Of a DNA stretch of 64,000 bases, positions 2,596 to 44,153 are shown piece after piece. Within the stretch, counting starts at the first letter, position 1. Every line of letters starts with the position of its first letter. The stretch is from Arthrobacter sp. StoSoilB5 (GTDB lineage Bacteria > Actinomycetota > Actinomycetes > Actinomycetales > Micrococcaceae). Below the pieces are notes generated by a model. It worked only from the letters and a program-made list of their open reading frames with translations. It was not told where the DNA came from and searched no databases. The DNA is taken from positions 4,588,001 to 4,652,000 of the forward strand of contig NZ_AP024646.1 of assembly GCF_019977235.1 (NCBI RefSeq). The letters are read 5' to 3'. Made by a program: the position numbers and the translations under genes.

Positions 2596-2634
2596 AAGTA
2601 GTTTGACAGTGGTTGCTCGGGGCTGTCAACCCTT

Positions 2635-3630
2635 TTATTTCGTGGAGTCCCGGATGACGAGTTCGTGCGGGAGGAAGGTTCTTCCCTTGCGATGTGAGCC
2701 CTCGACGGTCATCCGCTCCAGGAGTTCAGCGAAGGCTACGCGGCCCATTTCGTAGGCTGGCTGGCGGACTGTGGTCAGCTCCGGGACGCACATTTCTGCT
2801 TGGGCAGAGTCGTCGAAGCCTGCCACGGCGATGTCATCGGGAACTCGTAGTCCGGCGTCGGTGAGTTCACGGACGCAACCGGCTGCGACTACGTCGGTTC
2901 CGCAGAAGACTGCGTCCGGAAGCTCTTTTGCTTCCAGGAGCTTCTTCGTGAGCCTGCGGCCAGCGTGGAATCCGAAATTGCCTTCACCGAACAGGATCTG
3001 GTCCGGTTCCAATCCTTGCTCCGTGAGCGCTTGGCGGAAGCCCTCTTCCCGCAGCCGGCCTGAGCGGGCTCCCCTATGGGCGAGCATGGCCAGCTTCTTG
3101 GCGCCGGTGTTGATCAGGTGTTTGGTGATGTCGTAGGCGGCTTGGCGGTCGTCGATGGACACACCGAATGCCGCCTCGGCGTCGACGATTTCACAGACCT
3201 GGACCACGCTCATTTGCTCAGCGACTGTGTTGACGTCCTCGTCAGACATTGTTGGCGAAAAGATCACGAGCCCGTCCACTGAGCCGTTCCGCAGCATGTC
3301 CACGAGTTGCTGTTCGCGATCGAGGTCCCCGTCGGTGGCAGCGATGAGGCTGACGTAGCCGGAGTCCGCTGCAGCGTCGCCGACTCCGCGGAAGACTTCG
3401 CTGATCACCAATGAGTCCAGGTTCTTGGCGAGGGCCAGGACACGCATGGTGCGGTCTCTTCTTAGGTCTCTTGCTGAAGCGAGAGGACGGTAGCTGAGCT
3501 GACGGATTGCGGCGTTGACCTTCTCCTTGGCTGCCTCGCTGACGGCCGGGCTCCCGTTCAAAACGCGCGACACCGTCCCCACGGAGACACCCGCAGTCCT
3601 GGCGACGTCTTGAACTGTCGCTCGAGCCAT
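2635..3630 (-). CDS. LacI-family transcriptional regulator
   Basis: A 331-residue regulator with an N-terminal helix-turn-helix (VQDVARTAGVSVGTVSRVLN, residues 5-24) followed by a periplasmic-binding-like effector domain. The ATG at 3630 is preferred over the upstream start at 3693 because it places the HTH at the very N-terminus, as is usual, and has GGAAGG upstream. It lies directly upstream of, and in the same direction as, the sugar importer, with two perfect operators between. It is almost certainly the local repressor. The effector sugar is unknown. Confidence 0.93.
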   Translation of the reverse strand: MARATVQDVARTAGVSVGTVSRVLNGSPAVSEAAKEKVNAAIRQLSYRPLASARDLRRDRTMRVLALAKNLDSLVISEVFRGVGDAAADSGYVSLIAATDGDLDREQQLVDMLRNGSVDGLVIFSPTMSDEDVNTVAEQMSVVQVCEIVDAEAAFGVSIDDRQAAYDITKHLINTGAKKLAMLAHRGARSGRLREEGFRQALTEQGLEPDQILFGEGNFGFHAGRRLTKKLLEAKELPDAVFCGTDVVAAGCVRELTDAGLRVPDDIAVAGFDDSAQAEMCVPELTTVRQPAYEMGRVAFAELLERMTVEGSHRKGRTFLPHELVIRDSTK

Positions 3631-3782
3631 TCGATTTGTCCTTCCGCGAGCAGTGACGATGGTCCCGGCGCATTCACCGTCAATCCACAGCATTTTGGGG
3701 ATAACTAACCTGAGTACAGTACATCACGACTAGGGAACACAGATTATACGGACGACCCGCGTTAGCACCCTACCCCCTACAC

Positions 3783-4337
3783 CTAATCTTCCAAAACCTT
3801 TGCGACGGCTTCATCTAATGAAACTACAAAGTTTGCCGCTATCTCAATGGCCAGCTGACCGGCATTTGCTTTAAGCACTATAACTCGCCCCTGAAGCTCA
3901 GATTGCAAATCCAAGCTCAGCCTCTTCTTAAGTTCAAGGACTTTGAAGAGACTCTTGGCCTGGCGATCAGTCAGTTGATTGTTGCCATGCACAATTGCAT
4001 TTCGGACCTCGACAATCGTGGTGAGACTCTTAGCTTCGGAAAATTGACTCAAGGCAATGCCGAAACCTTTATCTAACCATAAGTTCCGCTCATCCCATGA
4101 TTGATGAAATGAGTTTGCGTTCCGCTGGACAAGCTGCCGACCGAAAGATGTCGTCAAAACATAAGACTTTCCAATGAATTCATCCAAAAAGTGGTCCACC
4201 AAAGCTTCTACGAGAGTTACCGACGTAACTATCTGGGCGTTGACCCCGCCCACCTCGGTCGAACGCAGGTTGAACAAAGACCGGAGGGAATCCTCGCTGG
4301 CTGGAAGTACCTTGGCATCAACCCGCAAATGAGGCAC
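3783..4337 (-). CDS. HEPN-domain protein paired with the reverse transcriptase
   Basis: A largely helical protein of about 184 residues. The segment EVRNAIVHG (residues 110-118) contains R112-N-A-I-V-H117, the Rx4-6H signature of HEPN ribonucleases, set between helices as in RiboL-PSP/AbiA-like HEPN domains. The GTG at 4337 gives a 20-bp overlap with the RT gene and has a weak GAGTGGG upstream. An ATG at 4412 is open in the same frame, but its extra 25 residues look like a shadow of the RT coding sequence. A single-base shift in the overlap would fuse it to the RT, which is the arrangement of AbiA (RT plus C-terminal HEPN). HEPN toxins in defence loci usually cut RNA; that role here is inferred. 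Codon use is more A/T-rich than in neighbours. Confidence 0.72.
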   Translation of the reverse strand: MPHLRVDAKVLPASEDSLRSLFNLRSTEVGGVNAQIVTSVTLVEALVDHFLDEFIGKSYVLTTSFGRQLVQRNANSFHQSWDERNLWLDKGFGIALSQFSEAKSLTTIVEVRNAIVHGNNQLTDRQAKSLFKVLELKKRLSLDLQSELQGRVIVLKANAGQLAIEIAANFVVSLDEAVAKVLED

Positions 4338-5805
4338 CCCACTCGAACGCAGGTTTCGTGAGGGCAGAGTCGGCCCGCAAAGCCTTGCCCACATTAGTGG
4401 GTTTAGCCGCATCTAACTTCCCTGCACAGGCCGCAAGGCCAATACGCGTAACATCGGTGGCGGCCACATAGAGTTCCCCAAGGCGGTCCGATGTCAACCG
4501 TTGTCGCATTGCCAGGAACCAAGCGGCCTCAGCGCGGACCGATTCAAAACGGTCGTCGAGTAATCCTACGGCCCACTCGATAACTGTCGACTCGGCAGAT
4601 GTCCACCCCGACTCGAAGGAATTGCCCAAATTAAGCATCCAAAGCCGCGCCCACGGGCTTTGGCGCGGCATTAGCGTCAATTGCGCCAGTGTCGACCAAT
4701 TCTCATCGACCTCATCACGACCTGTCACATATTTTGCGATATTGAAAAGCCGTATCGGCTCGCGTTGAGCAATTGCAGACAACCAGTCGTCATTAATACG
4801 GTTTGGGGCCGAAGTAAGCACTTTCAGAGCGCGGGTTCCATAGAAGGTGTAGATCCCTCGCTCACCAGATTCCTTGACTGCCCAGTCCTTTACAACCTCA
4901 GACAGGGCGGCAAAGTCCACGTCATCATCATCCGCCTCCGTGAGTACGACATCAAAGTCGTCGTACCCTACCCTGACATGCTCAATCGAACTCAGCTCAT
5001 CAGCCGCGCTATCCCTATATCTTTGGAACGCCGACTCTCTATCAATTTTCTCGCGACGAACCTGACGCGCGGAACGTATCTTTGTTTTACCATCCGCAAG
5101 CACTAAACCTATTCCGCGAGCGATTTCGACGGCTCGCTCAATGGCTTCATGTGCTTCACCCCAAGAAGCACTAATAACCCTAAAGTCATCGGCATATCTA
5201 TCTACTTGATATCCCGCACGGACCAACCCTCGTTCAAGCTGATTGAGATAGGCGTCCGCCAGGAGGTGGCTGCATTCCATGGCCTGCGGTATACCGACTC
5301 CTCGCGGAAATACGTCACCAAGCAAGCTACCCAAGGCAGAGATTGGCTTCTCATTCAGTGTTTGAAGAAGCAGTTCATTCGTGAGAACTTCGTGATTGAT
5401 GTACTCATAGCAAGCTGCAATGTCAAAGTCCACCAAGAGGACGTCATCAGCTTCCCCGCGATCAATACCGAATTCGTTGTGGGCATCCATGTCTCTATCC
5501 CGAGATGGAGACGGAAGACCTGACTTGAGGCTCTCCACTAATCCTTCATACAGGGTGCGAGCTTCCGGGGAAAGCAGCCCTATGGGACGTGGACCGAGTC
5601 CCTGCTTAGGCATTGCAACAGTTTCCATCACGGGCACATGGCCTGTGGTAAATCTGGCTTTTGTAGACTGGGCCAGCTCTTTGGTGGCACCCGCCAACGA
5701 ACGCTCCGATACCAGGTGAGGCATGAGAGTCAATGACGTGCTGACCGTCTTCTCAGCGGCAGCGTCGAACGGCAGGATGGATGCAACTTCAGACGATATA
5801 AGCAA
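4318..5805 (-). CDS. Reverse transcriptase of the Abi/unknown-group (defence) type
   Basis: A 495-residue protein with the full RT palm: the KQGLGPRPI region (67-75), motif A DFDIAACYEYI (126-136, catalytic D128), motif B GVGIPQAMECS (169-179), the catalytic YADD (204-207), and a GIGLVLADGKTKI thumb-side motif (231-243). Residues about 320-470 form a predicted all-helical, HEAT/alpha-repeat-like region (for example ESVRAEAAWFLAMRQ), as in AbiA, AbiK and other Abi RTs. The start is TTG at 5805, with AAGGAG 8 nt upstream. No maturase X domain, HNH domain or intron domain V was seen, and no retron msr/msd was recognised. It overlaps the HEPN gene. Line-level base composition is near 48% GC, against about 70% in the hyi gene, which suggests transfer. 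The product it synthesises is unknown. Confidence 0.88.
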   Translation of the reverse strand: MLISSEVASILPFDAAAEKTVSTSLTLMPHLVSERSLAGATKELAQSTKARFTTGHVPVMETVAMPKQGLGPRPIGLLSPEARTLYEGLVESLKSGLPSPSRDRDMDAHNEFGIDRGEADDVLLVDFDIAACYEYINHEVLTNELLLQTLNEKPISALGSLLGDVFPRGVGIPQAMECSHLLADAYLNQLERGLVRAGYQVDRYADDFRVISASWGEAHEAIERAVEIARGIGLVLADGKTKIRSARQVRREKIDRESAFQRYRDSAADELSSIEHVRVGYDDFDVVLTEADDDDVDFAALSEVVKDWAVKESGERGIYTFYGTRALKVLTSAPNRINDDWLSAIAQREPIRLFNIAKYVTGRDEVDENWSTLAQLTLMPRQSPWARLWMLNLGNSFESGWTSAESTVIEWAVGLLDDRFESVRAEAAWFLAMRQRLTSDRLGELYVAATDVTRIGLAACAGKLDAAKPTNVGKALRADSALTKPAFEWGASFAG

Positions 5806-6539
5806 CAGTCAGTCTCCTTGAGCTATGCGGTCAACTCTATGTTCGCACGTAGCAACGTGCTGTGAGTTCGCCGGTTACGGTGTCAAAGGATACGCGATTC
5901 AGTCCATTTGAAAGTCGCCGGAAGCCTACAGCTCTAAATGATTCATGTGAAAATCGGCGGGCTTGATTGGCCGACAGTCTGAAGAAATCCCCCGCAAGGT
6001 CCTGTATACCAAGGTAAAAGACCAGCTAGGTGAGCACTCATAACGGTCGCCCTTACTGAAGCTTGTTCCGAGAGTGACATCCGTTGCACAACTCGGCAAA
6101 GATCACACGGGAGCGGAACATTCATCGGTAAATCCCACGAAGGCGTCGATGCAGCAGACGAAGAAGCCGTATCCCACTCGCTAGCGTCAGAAGATTGGAA
6201 AAAGATCCCCAGCACACGGCCCTAACAACCAGCCACCATCGAGCGGGCCCGTTTGGCATCCCGACCGAGCGCCGGCATCCCCGAGCGCAACACGTGATGC
6301 CGCAGCACTTGGATAAACGAATAGATAGGACCATGCACCGGCGCAGAGACCGAGTTCCGCCCAAAATGATTTCCAAACCATCCTGAGCCCTGCGAGATAC
6401 TCCGCTTAGTCAGTCAAAGTCCATTATGAAAAACGCTGTCTTCGTCTGTTTTTCGCCGATCATGATTTCCTTCGCGGTCAAAGCGCACCAAAGCATGCCG
6501 CGTGGGCACTCGCTAAAGGCCAGCGGTGCCACCGCCCGC
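5806..6539. other. Unexplained 734-bp spacer between ATPase and RT genes
   Basis: No convincing gene is present. The short frames (for example 5943-6215 minus, 6122-6376 minus, 6426-6689 plus) overlap each other or the ATPase and look compositionally random. Visible structure: the hairpin GCACGT-AGCA-ACGTGC at 5845-5860, just upstream of the RT start on the transcribed strand, and CGGCATC-N16-GATGCCG at 6273-6302. Just after the ATPase stop, a small GCGGT/ACCGC hairpin lies near 6523-6535. The space is large enough for an RT-associated non-coding RNA or a promoter region; neither is proven. Confidence 0.5.
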
Positions 6540-7883
6540 TCAGTGAACTTCCACGGTTTCACCGGCAACTTTGCGAGCGTGGTGGACGAGCCAGCCCTTC
6601 GCCGTCAAGGTCACGGTCCTACGACGAGTGTCATCCTCGTCGATCTCAGCGTCGATGAGGCCAACCCGCTGAACCTCGGCGAAATTTGACCTCATCCGTT
6701 GGGGTGAGTTGAACCCCAAGGCCTCATGATCGCTCGGAGAGCATACTCCGCCCAGCGCGGCCAAGTCGTCAAACAACTGCCACATACGAGGTTGGAGCCT
6801 GATCGACGCTGTGATTTCCTGCGCTTCCAAAGCGAGCCACTGCTTCAGCGTCGGAAGATATTCGACTTGAGGTAGGTGAAGCTTGTCTTCGATTTCAAGC
6901 CAGCTGCAGAAGTCTTGCGCGTACCGAAACGCGTCACGCAAATTGGCGTGACACATTTCATAAAGATAGAGGAACTCCGTAGCGCCGACGGGGCACACAG
7001 CGCCGTCACGCGCAGCAAAGTGATTGAGCCGAGCACCAATCAACTCTTCAATGCGGGAGTCAGCGATTGGGGTAACCTCTATGGGTCGTGAAATTCTGCC
7101 GTTCAACCTAGGGGAACTGACCGAGGCACGAATAATACCTTTTGCGCCACAAAGAACCCAACGGACGCCTGGAAGACTCAGGGTAGTATCGCGGATCTTT
7201 TCCAAAACCCGACCAGCCTCACTGCTACGGCCAAGGAGTTCGACATTGTCAATAATGGCAACAAGACCACCCGCTGATTGGGTCGGGAAAACCTTTTTCA
7301 AGGCATCCCGTACGAGCCTTTCCAGTCCTGAATTTTCGAAACCAACCGAAGTGTTGACTTCATCAGTCTTTTGTCCTTCGGCGCCGATACCAAGTATCTG
7401 CACTCCGCCACCACCCGATGACACGATGGGTTCGTTCATCCACCGCTTCAACTCAGACAGGTTCGGCGTTGTAAGCCTAAGGTCTTTAAAGTGGCCCTCA
7501 TGCTTAATCAGAGACTGGGCTATTGCAAGCAAGGCCTCTCTGTGAAAGACGTTGGCGTCGGTTCCAAGCTGGAGCACACCATCGACCGGAACCAATGTCT
7601 GCCCCAACGTTCCCGCAAATCGCTTCTGAATTGCTTCGTAGACGGTAACCAGGACGAGGCTGGTCTTGCCGACGCCGTTATCGCCTTCCAGGGATGCATG
7701 AAGGGTTGAGCTCGTGAGCTTGCTCATCAGCTCGCGCTTTTCACGTTCACGACCGACAAGTAAGGTCAACCCTTCCGAGTTCGCTGCCAAGGAACGCGAA
7801 TCGAAGGGGTTGTCCGTGAAGCCTAAATCGTTCCAAAGTGACAAGTCTGAGCTCCCTGGCATGCGTCCGGTCTGGTCGTACAT
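6540..7883 (-). CDS. AAA ATPase with C-terminal winged helix (Orc1/Cdc6-like architecture)
   Basis: About 447 residues from the ATG at 7883. The protein begins with a short WNDLGFTDNPFDSR-type segment and LLVGREREKRELMSKL (41-56), the usual lead-in of Cdc6-like and AAA_16 ATPases. Walker A is GDNGVGKTS (67-75) and Walker B is LVAIIDN (207-213, D212), with Asn in place of the usual second acidic residue. Residues about 365-435 read as a winged helix (ALGFNSPQRMRSNFAEVQRVGLI). The start is uncertain: TTG 7952, ATG 7883 and ATG 7862 are in frame and none has a strong ribosome site. It lies on the same strand as RT and HEPN, shares their lower GC, and is separated from lacI and hyi by long spacers. 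A sensor or regulatory ATPase in a defence locus is plausible but inferred. Confidence 0.8.
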   Translation of the reverse strand: MYDQTGRMPGSSDLSLWNDLGFTDNPFDSRSLAANSEGLTLLVGREREKRELMSKLTSSTLHASLEGDNGVGKTSLVLVTVYEAIQKRFAGTLGQTLVPVDGVLQLGTDANVFHREALLAIAQSLIKHEGHFKDLRLTTPNLSELKRWMNEPIVSSGGGGVQILGIGAEGQKTDEVNTSVGFENSGLERLVRDALKKVFPTQSAGGLVAIIDNVELLGRSSEAGRVLEKIRDTTLSLPGVRWVLCGAKGIIRASVSSPRLNGRISRPIEVTPIADSRIEELIGARLNHFAARDGAVCPVGATEFLYLYEMCHANLRDAFRYAQDFCSWLEIEDKLHLPQVEYLPTLKQWLALEAQEITASIRLQPRMWQLFDDLAALGGVCSPSDHEALGFNSPQRMRSNFAEVQRVGLIDAEIDEDDTRRRTVTLTAKGWLVHHARKVAGETVEVH

Positions 7884-8290
7884 AAAACTAGCATCGCCGA
7901 AGTAAAACCGTGCTGCCCGCGGCCCCGCGATTGGCAAAAGAGACCCGCCCAATCACTGACAGGTACGGGCTGCACTCATGGGCAACCGTCGCAGCTTGAA
8001 GCGGCCTAGGATCTGACCCTCGCTGCACAAGCCACCGATCCGTTCATTCATTCGACTAAGTACAGCGCTGGGGTTAACCCCAGGAATCAAGCGCGCTGCC
8101 CGGTGGGGTGCACTTCATGTATGGGATGAACTTACGCTGACCTCCGGTCAGCAAGCCCAGATGCGCCCTTCATCGCGATTGGCGAGTCGTACTGAGTTTC
8201 GACAAGCACCCCTGTTCCGCGATGTTTCGGCGTTAGGGAAAAGCCACCCTAACCGTTTGACTGAGTACCCCCACTCCCCCACCCACCCCC
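7884..8290. other. Island edge spacer with three perfect hairpins
   Basis: No gene was recognised. Three perfect inverted repeats occur: CTGGGGTTAACCCCAG (8068-8083), GCTGACC-TCC-GGTCAGC (8136-8152) and GTTAGGG-N8-CCCTAAC (8232-8253). They lie upstream of the ATPase on its strand and upstream of the hyi promoter on the other. They could form a structured leader or small RNA of the island, or a terminator remnant. No flanking direct repeat or integrase was found to define the island edge. Confidence 0.45.
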
Positions 8291-8319
8291 TTGACTCCCA
8301 CCCCTACCTTCCCTAGACT
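8291..8319 (+). promoter_or_regulatory. Sigma-70-type promoter of the hyi operon
   Basis: TTGACT (8291-8296) and TAGACT (8314-8319) are separated by exactly 17 bp. The predicted start point falls inside the operator pair that begins at 8320. The hyi start codon is about 110 bp downstream. Confidence 0.75.
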
Positions 8320-8355
8320 TTTCATAAAGCAGAATCTAAATTCCACAAAGCGGAA
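8320..8355. promoter_or_regulatory. Two in-phase operators (TTCC-N7-GGAA type) of the glyoxylate operon
   Basis: TTCCACAAAGCGGAA (8341-8355) and its variant TTTCATAAAGCAGAA (8320-8334) match at 12 of 15 positions and are 21 bp apart, two helical turns. They start right after the -10 box, an arrangement suited to repression. A similar site, TTCCATGATGCGGAA, precedes uraD at 22446. The regulator is not encoded in the window; an AllR/IclR-like or GntR-like purine-catabolism repressor is a guess. Confidence 0.75.
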
Positions 8356-8429
8356 ACTGAGGCCAAGCACCGAGGCAGCAGTCAAGCAGCAGGAAGATAG
8401 ATCAAAGCCCCTCCTCGGAAGGACCTACG

Positions 8430-9233
8430 ATGACGTACACAGTGAACTGTTCCATCCTCCTGACGGAGCTGCCCTTGCTCGAGCGCCCCGCCGCCGCGAA
8501 GGCAGCCGGTTTTGACGCCGTCGAGTTCTGGTGGCCCTTCGAAACGTCCGTCCCCAGCGACGCCCAAGTAACCGAGTTCGAAACCGCCATCAAGGACGCC
8601 GGCGTTCAGCTCACGGGCCTGAACTTCAACGCCGGCAACATGCCCGGCGGCGACCGCGGCCTCGTCTCCTGGCCGGCACGCTCCACCGAGTTCCAGGACA
8701 ACATCGACGTTGTCGCAGGCATCGGTGAGCGCCTCGGCTGCAAGGCCTTCAACGCCCTCTACGGCAACCGCATCGACGGCGAATCGGCCGAGAAGCAGGA
8801 CGCCATTGGTGCCGAAAACCTCGCAACCGCAGCGGCCGGCGTCGCCCGCATCGGCGGCACCGTCCTCCTCGAGCCGGTCAGCGGCGCACCCAAGTACCCG
8901 CTCCTCACCGCCGAAGACGCACTCAAGGTCATCGCCCGCGTCAGGGCCGAATCCGGCGTCGACAACGTCAAGCTCCTCGCCGACTTCTACCACCTTGCAG
9001 TCAACGGGGACGACGTCGAATCCGTCATCGAGAACCACGCCAAGGACTTCGGCCACATCCAGATCGCCGACAACCCCGGCCGCGGCGCTCCCGGAACCGG
9101 CACGCTCCCCCTCGGCGAATGGATCGCCCGCAGCCGCGAACTCGGCTACGCAGGCTACATCGGTTTGGAATACAAGGAACCGCAGGAAACGGCCTTCAGC
9201 TGGGCAATCCGCCAGCGCGCCAACGCCAACTAA
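8430..9233 (+). CDS. hyi: Hydroxypyruvate isomerase
   Basis: A 267-residue cytoplasmic TIM-barrel enzyme of the AP-endonuclease-2/Hyi family. It interconverts hydroxypyruvate and tartronate semialdehyde. Family features visible include LEPVSGAPKYPLL (about 149-161), LLADFYHLAVNGDD (about 188-201) and FGHIQIADNPGRGAPGTG (about 212-229), which carry the metal-binding Glu, Asp and His residues. The length is normal. The start ATG follows GGAAGGA by 7 nt. It is the first gene of the glyoxylate operon with glxR and gcl, which supports the assignment strongly. Confidence 0.93.
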   Translation: MTYTVNCSILLTELPLLERPAAAKAAGFDAVEFWWPFETSVPSDAQVTEFETAIKDAGVQLTGLNFNAGNMPGGDRGLVSWPARSTEFQDNIDVVAGIGERLGCKAFNALYGNRIDGESAEKQDAIGAENLATAAAGVARIGGTVLLEPVSGAPKYPLLTAEDALKVIARVRAESGVDNVKLLADFYHLAVNGDDVESVIENHAKDFGHIQIADNPGRGAPGTGTLPLGEWIARSRELGYAGYIGLEYKEPQETAFSWAIRQRANAN

Positions 9234-9243
9234 GCACCGTGCG

Positions 9244-9309
9244 CCCAACTAAGTAGCAGCAGAGCGCGTTTAGAACCCTCAAAACGCGCACTAATGCGAC
9301 CTAGTTGGG
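9244..9309. repeat. 66-bp intergenic palindrome, copy 1
   Basis: Begins CCCAACTA and ends TAGTTGGG, with long imperfect arms (GCGCGTTT / AAAACGCGC near the centre) around a core TAGAACCCTCA. The length equals that of the copies at 48814 and 57544. It lies between hyi and glxR, so its transcript would fold into a long hairpin inside the operon. Confidence 0.85.
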
Positions 9310-44021: not shown

Positions 44022-44100
44022 TCAGGTGACTTTGGCCACCAGAAGTGGCCACCCTACGCGGGAGTTGCTAGCCTGAAATGAAGGTTCCGCTCTGGAACCT

Positions 44101-44141
44101 CCGGACGACGGTTCAGTACCCGGCACGCGACAAGACTGGCC
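44101..44141 (+). promoter_or_regulatory. Guanidine-III riboswitch (ykkC-III)
   Basis: CCGGACGACGG, then GTACCCGG and GACAAGAC follow in the order and spacing of the ykkC-III consensus. CCGG at 44101-44104 can pair with CCGG in ACCCGG to form the pseudoknot, and CAGT (44114-44117) pairs with ACTG (44135-44138). The ribosome site AAAGGA (44142-44147) follows immediately, so guanidine would control its access. Two SMR exporter genes lie directly downstream, the expected regulon. Confidence 0.85.
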
Positions 44142-44153
44142 AAAGGATCTGTC

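What the first reader, a model, noticed from the sequence alone, without database searches (positions are those of the whole stretch)
3783..7883. Candidate undescribed defence locus: RT, overlapping HEPN protein and an Orc/Cdc6-like ATPase
Seen: three minus-strand genes with lower GC than their neighbours lie between a sugar-importer regulator and the glyoxylate operon. They are an RT with YADD and Abi-like helical C-terminus, a HEPN protein with RNAIVH, and an AAA ATPase with winged helix. Known: AbiA joins RT and HEPN in one chain, and several unknown-group RTs are anti-phage systems. Inferred: this is a split AbiA-like system with an added ATPase, which I cannot match to a named DRT type. 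The 734-bp gap means the ATPase may be separate.
Basis: partly seen in the sequence, partly recalled or inferred. Interest (0 to 1): 0.87.

Follow-up and report, generated by a model that had tools for sequence, protein, structure and literature searches.

The report
Reverse-transcriptase and RNase phage-defence gene pair

Summary
The three minus-strand genes are real, but they are not one three-part system. The RT (4318-5805) is a full-length member of the catalogued group UG22 (PADLOC E 2.8e-145). The overlapping HEPN gene (3783-4337) matches PADLOC's RT-associated HEPN model (E 7.9e-36). Of 28 RT loci examined, 24 carry a HEPN reading frame with RNxxxH overlapping the RT's end. In 150 genomes of the genus, both occur in the same four. 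The RT model matches Class-1 defence RTs over its full length (DRT6, DRT4/UG15, AbiK, AbiA), helical domain included. Its catalytic Asp are invariant, and a conserved Tyr281 sits where AbiA has its priming loop. HEPN R112/N113/H117 are invariant in 25 of 25. The ATPase was found at none of 27 other RT loci, so it is most likely a passenger. All three lie in a lacI-hyi hotspot, empty in three relatives; 11 of 15 other occupied copies hold PADLOC-type defence genes (DRT9, Septu-like PtuA, Dsr1). Most likely: a two-gene defence module whose template-free, protein-primed DNA polymerase gates a HEPN RNase that aborts infection. The identity is well supported; the mechanism is inferred. Two searches of the held library found no paper on UG22.

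The parts
3783..4337 (-). HEPN protein (184 aa, GTG start; ORF open up to ATG 4412), RTasHEPN family
3987..4004 (-). HEPN catalytic motif R112-N-A-I-V-H117
   Evidence: R112, N113 and H117 invariant in 25 of 25 aligned sequences, window included
4318..5805 (-). UG22 reverse transcriptase (495 aa, TTG start, AAGGAG at 5814-5819)
   Evidence: PADLOC RT_UG22 2.8e-145, residues 4-490; AlphaFold2 pLDDT 92
5185..5196 (-). RT active-site motif Y204-A-D206-D207 (third catalytic Asp, D128, at 5422-5424)
   Evidence: D128, D206 and D207 in 24 of 24 intact RTs from loci and 25 of 25 in A1
4963..4965 (-). Tyr281, candidate protein-priming tyrosine in the segment between RT and helical domains
   Evidence: Tyr in 21 of 24 intact loci RTs and in all 24 other A1 proteins; same place in the domain order as the AbiA 290-310 priming loop. 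Inference, not a test
4333..4929 (-). C-terminal helical (HEAT-like) domain of the RT, residues about 293-491
   Evidence: all-helical in the model; aligned with DRT6, DRT4 and AbiK up to residues 486-495; weak profile matches to coatomer gamma and designed armadillo repeats at 359-447
4318..4337 (-). 20-nt overlap of the RT stop and proposed HEPN start (translational coupling, inferred)
   Evidence: open HEPN frames overlap the RT end in 22 of 22 RT-HEPN loci; the start codons I chose lie 37 nt before to 6 nt after the RT's last base
5806..6539 (-). 734-bp gap upstream of the RT, no feature found
   Evidence: no Rfam match; folding z -0.91 for the 300 nt next to the RT; no significant DNA match at other RT loci or in plasmids
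6540..7883 (-). P-loop ATPase; most likely a separate passenger gene
   Evidence: not found near 27 of 27 other RTs; sporadic relatives without the RT
3666..8267 (.). variable cargo of the lacI-hyi hotspot (flanks lacI 2635-3693 and hyi 8430-9233)
   Evidence: flank homology stops here in relatives; 3 empty and 16 occupied copies measured, window included

Best explanation
A two-gene anti-phage module of the UG22 defence-RT group, carried as interchangeable cargo in a chromosomal defence hotspot. SHOWN by sequence and models: the RT and HEPN genes overlap and are inherited together; the RT has an intact active site and a Class-1 (HEAT-like helical) architecture; the HEPN keeps its RNase motif. 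INFERRED: the RT makes DNA without a nucleic-acid template, starting from its own Tyr281, and forms an oligomer that holds the HEPN dimer. On infection a phage factor that binds or alters this DNA-protein complex frees or activates the HEPN RNase, which cuts cellular RNA (tRNA is a common HEPN target) and stops phage growth. The neighbouring ATPase is a separate passenger. My confidence: identity as a UG22 RT-HEPN module 0.9; defence role 0.85; HEPN as the active effector gated by the RT 0.5.
Against: No experiment. In AbiA the HEPN showed no RNase activity and its R/H residues were dispensable for defence (PMC11077055, passages). In two loci (L060, L016) the RT frame is broken while the HEPN ORF is intact, which argues against a HEPN that is lethal without its RT. 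4 of 28 RT loci lack the HEPN. Tyr281 is missing in 3 of 24 intact loci RTs. A group II intron RT scores as high a Z (18.4) as UG15, though over 247 residues only. The mirror-tree test does not remove shared species ancestry. A small unannotated RNA partner cannot be excluded.
Confidence: 0.5

Rival explanations
1. AbiA-like in two pieces: the HEPN is a structural dimeriser that assembles the RT, and the protein-primed DNA itself is the toxic or phage-blocking product.
For: AbiA has RT, helical and HEPN domains; its HEPN mediates dimerisation, showed no RNase activity, and its motif is not needed for defence (PMC11077055, passages). DRT4, the second-ranked fold match, is described as a single-gene system acting through ssDNA (PMC13213688, part 1 of 2 of the text).
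Against: The motif is the canonical R-X4-H with R112, N113 and H117 invariant in 25 of 25 although mean column identity is only 33%. The HEPN is a free protein, and the RT already has its own helical domain, as in the single-gene DRT4 and DRT6.
Confidence: 0.27
2. ncRNA-templated system of the DRT2, DRT9, DRT10 or retron kind: an undetected RNA upstream or downstream is the template and the HEPN the effector.
For: Type IX retrons pair an RT and ncRNA with a HEPN RNase (PMC13405049, passages); 734 bp of sequence without a clear gene lie upstream.
Against: No Rfam match, folding z -0.91, no significant shared upstream sequence. Upstream spacing varies widely between loci, and between L060 and L061 upstream DNA (81-88% per 100 columns) is somewhat less conserved than the genes (87-98%). 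The RT matches Class 1 folds. No covariance model of the upstream regions was built.
Confidence: 0.12
3. Three-gene system in which the ATPase is the sensor or regulator of the RT-HEPN pair.
For: Same strand, same hotspot insert, similar low GC.
Against: ATPase not found at 27 of 27 other RT loci, though L005, L006 and L065 have under 2 kb upstream. ATPase in 3 of 150 genus and 2 of 296 class genomes, own genome included in both; the two other genus carriers, G028 and G085, are not among the four RT carriers. Hotspot copies stack unrelated cargo.
Confidence: 0.04
4. Not defence: a domesticated or decaying retroelement gene with a bystander HEPN.
For: The RT is rare and sporadic: 4 of 150, 6 of 394 and 5 of 396 genomes, own genome included in each; broken in L060 and L016.
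Against: Catalytic residues invariant in the intact RTs, HEPN in the same overlapping place in 24 of 28 loci, defence hotspot, PADLOC family match. The NCBIfam group II intron model scores 58 bits against a cut-off of 300.
Confidence: 0.05

Closest known systems
UG22 RT plus RT-associated HEPN (PADLOC-DB models RT_UG22 and RTasHEPN)
   Same: Full-length match of the RT and a match of the HEPN; same gene order and overlap in relatives
   Different: No difference found; this is a member. Two searches of the held library found no paper on UG22
AbiA (Lactococcus abortive-infection polymerase)
   Different: Two separate genes; HEPN motif R-X4-H instead of R-X6-H; RT fold scores higher against DRT6 and DRT4
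DRT6 and DRT4 (UG15)
   Same: Highest-scoring full-length fold matches, 425-432 residues aligned; also the first two Foldseek rows
   Different: Described as single-gene systems (PMC13213688, part 1 of 2)
Type IX retron (Kva2)
   Same: RT-gated HEPN RNase as a possible analogy
   Different: Retron has ncRNA/msDNA and a winged-helix protein; its HEPN lacks the canonical motif (PMC13405049, passages)

Membership tests
UG22 defence RT | Full-length match to the UG22 profile, better than any other RT profile | tested here: met
   483 bits, residues 4-490; next best UG21 at 95 bits
UG22 defence RT | RT-associated HEPN gene adjacent | tested here: met
   RTasHEPN 7.9e-36; 24 of 28 RT loci have the HEPN. 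That the adjacency defines UG22 is my reading of the PADLOC names, not taken from the defining paper
Class 1 UG/Abi RT | RT fused to a HEAT-like helical domain | tested here: met
   helical residues 293-491; full-length alignment with AbiK, DRT4 and DRT6; definition from passages
Class 1 UG/Abi RT | Template-independent, protein-primed DNA synthesis | not testable with these tools
   only a candidate priming Tyr281, present in 21 of 24 intact loci RTs
AbiA | RT, helical and HEPN domains in one chain | tested here: not met
   two ORFs in different frames overlapping by 20 nt
AbiA | HEPN motif R-X6-H | tested here: not met
   R-X4-H (RNAIVH), invariant R, N and H in 25 of 25; AbiA motif from PMC11077055 (passages)
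HEPN RNase superfamily | HEPN fold with R-X4-6-H motif | tested here: met
HEPN RNase superfamily | RNase activity | not testable with these tools
   none
Named DRT types | Best match to the RT of that type | tested here: not met
   highest scores in the 25 of 48 rows shown: Drt8 76, Drt9 35, Drt3a 35, UG17 (= DRT10) 30, Drt6 20 bits, against UG22 483; Drt3a 31.9, Drt4 19.4, Drt5 16.3 and Drt2 14.6 bits, all far below NCBIfam cut-offs
Group II intron RT | NCBIfam TIGR04416 cut-off (300 bits) | tested here: not met
   58.3 bits
Type IX retron | ncRNA and winged-helix partner | tested here: inconclusive
   no ncRNA signal; a winged-helix partner at the RT loci was not searched for by profile
Orc/Cdc6-like AAA (the third gene) | AAA_16 above the curated cut-off, winged helix | tested here: inconclusive
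   24.7 bits against 32.6; a few relatives are named MarR-type winged helix by their sources

The most novel reading that the evidence does not exclude
UG22-HEPN is a template-free counterpart of a retron: protein-primed, untemplated DNA made on Tyr281 of a Class 1 RT serves as the infection sensor that locks a co-encoded, catalytically active HEPN RNase, and phage DNA-binding or DNA-processing proteins acting on that DNA release it. This would be a Class 1 DRT with a separate enzymatic effector, unlike AbiA, DRT4 and DRT6 where DNA synthesis alone is thought to be the weapon.
Probability: 0.3. Interest if true: 0.75.

Novelty: new member of a known kind. Interest (0 to 1): 0.45.

Why it matters
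How Class 1 defence RTs turn odd DNA synthesis into immunity is open. UG22 separates the polymerase and a well-conserved HEPN into two genes, so each can be mutated or removed on its own. That makes the question 'is HEPN the effector or only scaffolding?', answered for AbiA in favour of scaffolding, directly testable in a system whose HEPN motif is strictly conserved. The lacI-hyi hotspot is also a practical place to look for further actinobacterial defence genes: in four occupied copies the proteins scanned had no strong PADLOC match.

Tried and rejected
Rejected: three-gene system (ATPase not found near other RTs). Rejected: group II intron or named DRT type. Tried without result: ncRNA in the gap; promoter and terminator scan no better than shuffles; exact direct repeats of 9 nt or more between 3561-3800 and 8181-8440, none; Foldseek for HEPN gave no significant hit, only VIA-align did; PDB sequence searches for the ATPase, none, and with the HEPN profile, nothing better than E 0.64; UG22 RT in phage records, none at E 1e-5; one weak RT in viral contigs, a 343-aa ORF, too short for UG22. 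Sequence searches of the PDB with the RT profile rank group II maturases above DRT9, Drt3a and AbiK; the family profiles and full-length fold decide otherwise. An RT tree was not built, as reference RT sequences were not fetched; profile scores and folds stand in for it.

Dropped rows: L020 and L026 (weak RT-only matches) and plasmid hits H3 and H4 (26% over 37-39% of the query, H3 annotated as group II intron) were left out of the 28; L001, L021, L063 and the like duplicate other loci. L060 and L016 were left out of the RT residue counts and the mirror tree because their RT frames are broken, which could also be a sequencing error. L018, L066, L069 and L070 lack the HEPN; L018 has a transposase-like ORF there (my reading of its translation), and by profile score L066, L069 and L070 are the three weakest RTs. 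Three RTs lack the Tyr at 281 (L018 Phe; L017 and L070 gap), and the alignment there is uncertain for L066 and L069. Some A1 proteins repeat the loci. Hotspot: copies were chosen from the printed, cut-off list where both flanks lay on one contig within about 21 kb; genomes with the flanks on different contigs or far apart were left out, so the 19 copies measured are no census of the 121 genomes. Only 29 cargo proteins, chosen for size, from 14 of the 15 other occupied copies were scanned (none of L076); L072, L073, L080 and L088 gave no strong hit. Some PADLOC models (PtuA, mad3, AriA) are broad ATPase models, so those labels are loose, and the control holds housekeeping proteins, not ATPases. 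In one of three ATPase relatives (L093) the gene adjoins another low-GC, ATPase-like ORF; in L094 and L095 it stands between high-GC genes.
Full report
WHAT IS THERE. The RT is 4318-5805 on the minus strand, starting at TTG behind a good ribosome-binding site (AAGGAG). The HEPN gene runs to 3783 and most likely starts at GTG 4337, overlapping the RT stop by 20 nt. The ATPase is 6540-7883, separated by 734 bp. GC is below that of the flanks. The flanking genes are a LacI-type regulator and a TIM-barrel enzyme of the hydroxypyruvate isomerase kind (Pfam LacI, Peripla_BP_3 and AP_endonuc_2; the name hyi is mine).

THE ATPASE IS MOST LIKELY NO PARTNER. tblastn finds it at none of the 27 other RT loci; 24 of these have at least 3.4 kb upstream of the RT frame, but L005, L006 and L065 have less than 2 kb. 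It is in none of the 18 other hotspot copies. It occurs in 3 of 150 genus genomes and 2 of 296 class genomes, own genome included in both. In three relatives inspected it is a low-GC gene, twice between high-GC genes and once beside another low-GC, ATPase-like ORF. The protein search gave 451 homologues from a capped candidate list; the named ones among the 120 shown are nearly all actinobacterial, with one Pseudomonas.

THE SETTING IS A DEFENCE HOTSPOT. Searching 121 genomes of the genus, own included, with 2600-9300 showed that homology typically ends near 3665 and resumes near 8267. From the printed list I fetched 18 further copies with both flanks on one contig within about 21 kb. In three the flanking genes' matches are 238-342 bp apart, so the site is empty. 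In the other 15 and in the window they are 4.2-18.5 kb apart, with lacI 85-95% and hyi 85-91% identical to the window's but mostly unrelated cargo. PADLOC scans of 29 cargo proteins from 14 copies gave strong matches (E 1e-20 or better) in nine: PtuA 4.3e-123 (L071), PD-Lambda-2_B (L074, L075), mad3 (L077), NsnA and AriA (L079), PRTase_III-A 2.2e-80 (L081), another UG22 RT 1.5e-151 (L082), Drt9 2.8e-168 (L083), and Dsr1 5.2e-62 with NsnA 2.2e-80 (L084). Two more follow by homology to these (L076, L078). That is 11 of 15. Eight flanking housekeeping proteins gave nothing better than 3.2e-4. This is the best evidence here that the RT-HEPN pair is a defence module; it is evidence by company, not by phenotype.

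HOW IT MOST LIKELY WORKS. Class 1 RTs studied so far synthesise DNA without a nucleic-acid template (PMC13174585, passages); DRT4 makes random ssDNA stabilised by a phage protein, and the same protein activates DRT6 (PMC13213688, part 1 of 2 of the text). AbiA primes from Tyr298/Tyr303 in the loop joining RT and helical domains (PMC11077055, passages). In UG22 the corresponding segment (between helix 246-271 and the first repeat helix at 293) varies in length and is often acidic but carries a Tyr (281) in 21 of 24 intact loci RTs and in all 24 other homologues of A1; some of those proteins repeat the loci. I predict it is the priming residue. I found no sign of an ncRNA: no Rfam match, unremarkable folding (z -0.91), no significant shared upstream sequence, variable spacing, and upstream DNA somewhat less conserved (81-88%) than the genes (87-98%) between the close pair L060/L061. 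The HEPN keeps strictly the RNase motif that AbiA does not need, so I favour a gated RNase effector, by analogy with the type IX retron in which an RT complex holds a HEPN RNase until infection (PMC13405049, passages). Against a simple toxin-antitoxin reading, L060 has an RT broken by a one-base deletion relative to L061 and an in-frame stop while its HEPN is intact and conserved against L061 (dN/dS 0.18; most of that divergence may precede the RT damage), and L016 has a frameshifted RT with intact HEPN. Because the genes overlap, a broken RT may also lower HEPN synthesis, so this is only moderate evidence.

WHAT IS KNOWN. Both genes are catalogued in PADLOC-DB, so 'undescribed' is too strong. 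In the held library no paper contains UG22 with HEPN and 'reverse transcriptase' or UG22 with 'reverse transcriptases'. The paper that defines the UG groups (Mestre et al. 2022) is not held, so I know it only through citing papers and cannot say what it reports on UG22. I therefore rate this a new member of a known, apparently untested kind.

Noticed in passing
window 3666-8267 and loci L071-L088: Chromosomal hotspot between lacI and hyi in this actinobacterial genus: empty in 3 and filled with different cargo in 16 of the 19 copies measured (window included), 11 of the 15 other occupied ones with PADLOC-type defence genes.
   Followed up: partly
L082 (G072), RT ORF 1060-2910: A second, distant UG22 RT (31% identical over 241 residues) with its own RNAIAH HEPN sits in the same hotspot in another genome, in the opposite orientation.
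   Followed up: yes
L083, ORF 1401-2933: A DRT9-type RT (PADLOC Drt9 2.8e-168) in the same hotspot of an actinobacterium.
   Followed up: no
L060 (G017) and L016: UG22 RT genes broken (one-base deletion plus in-frame stop in L060; frameshift in L016) beside intact HEPN ORFs.
   Followed up: partly
L072, L073, L080, L088: Hotspot cargoes whose scanned proteins gave no strong PADLOC match; candidates for unknown defence genes.
   Followed up: no
window 6540-7883; L093, L094, L095: Sporadic, low-GC P-loop ATPase family (451 homologues in a capped search, named ones mostly actinobacterial); possibly a single-gene defence or mobile gene.
   Followed up: partly
window 44079-44144 (+): Guanidine-III riboswitch (Rfam RF01763, 60.2 bits).
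   Followed up: no
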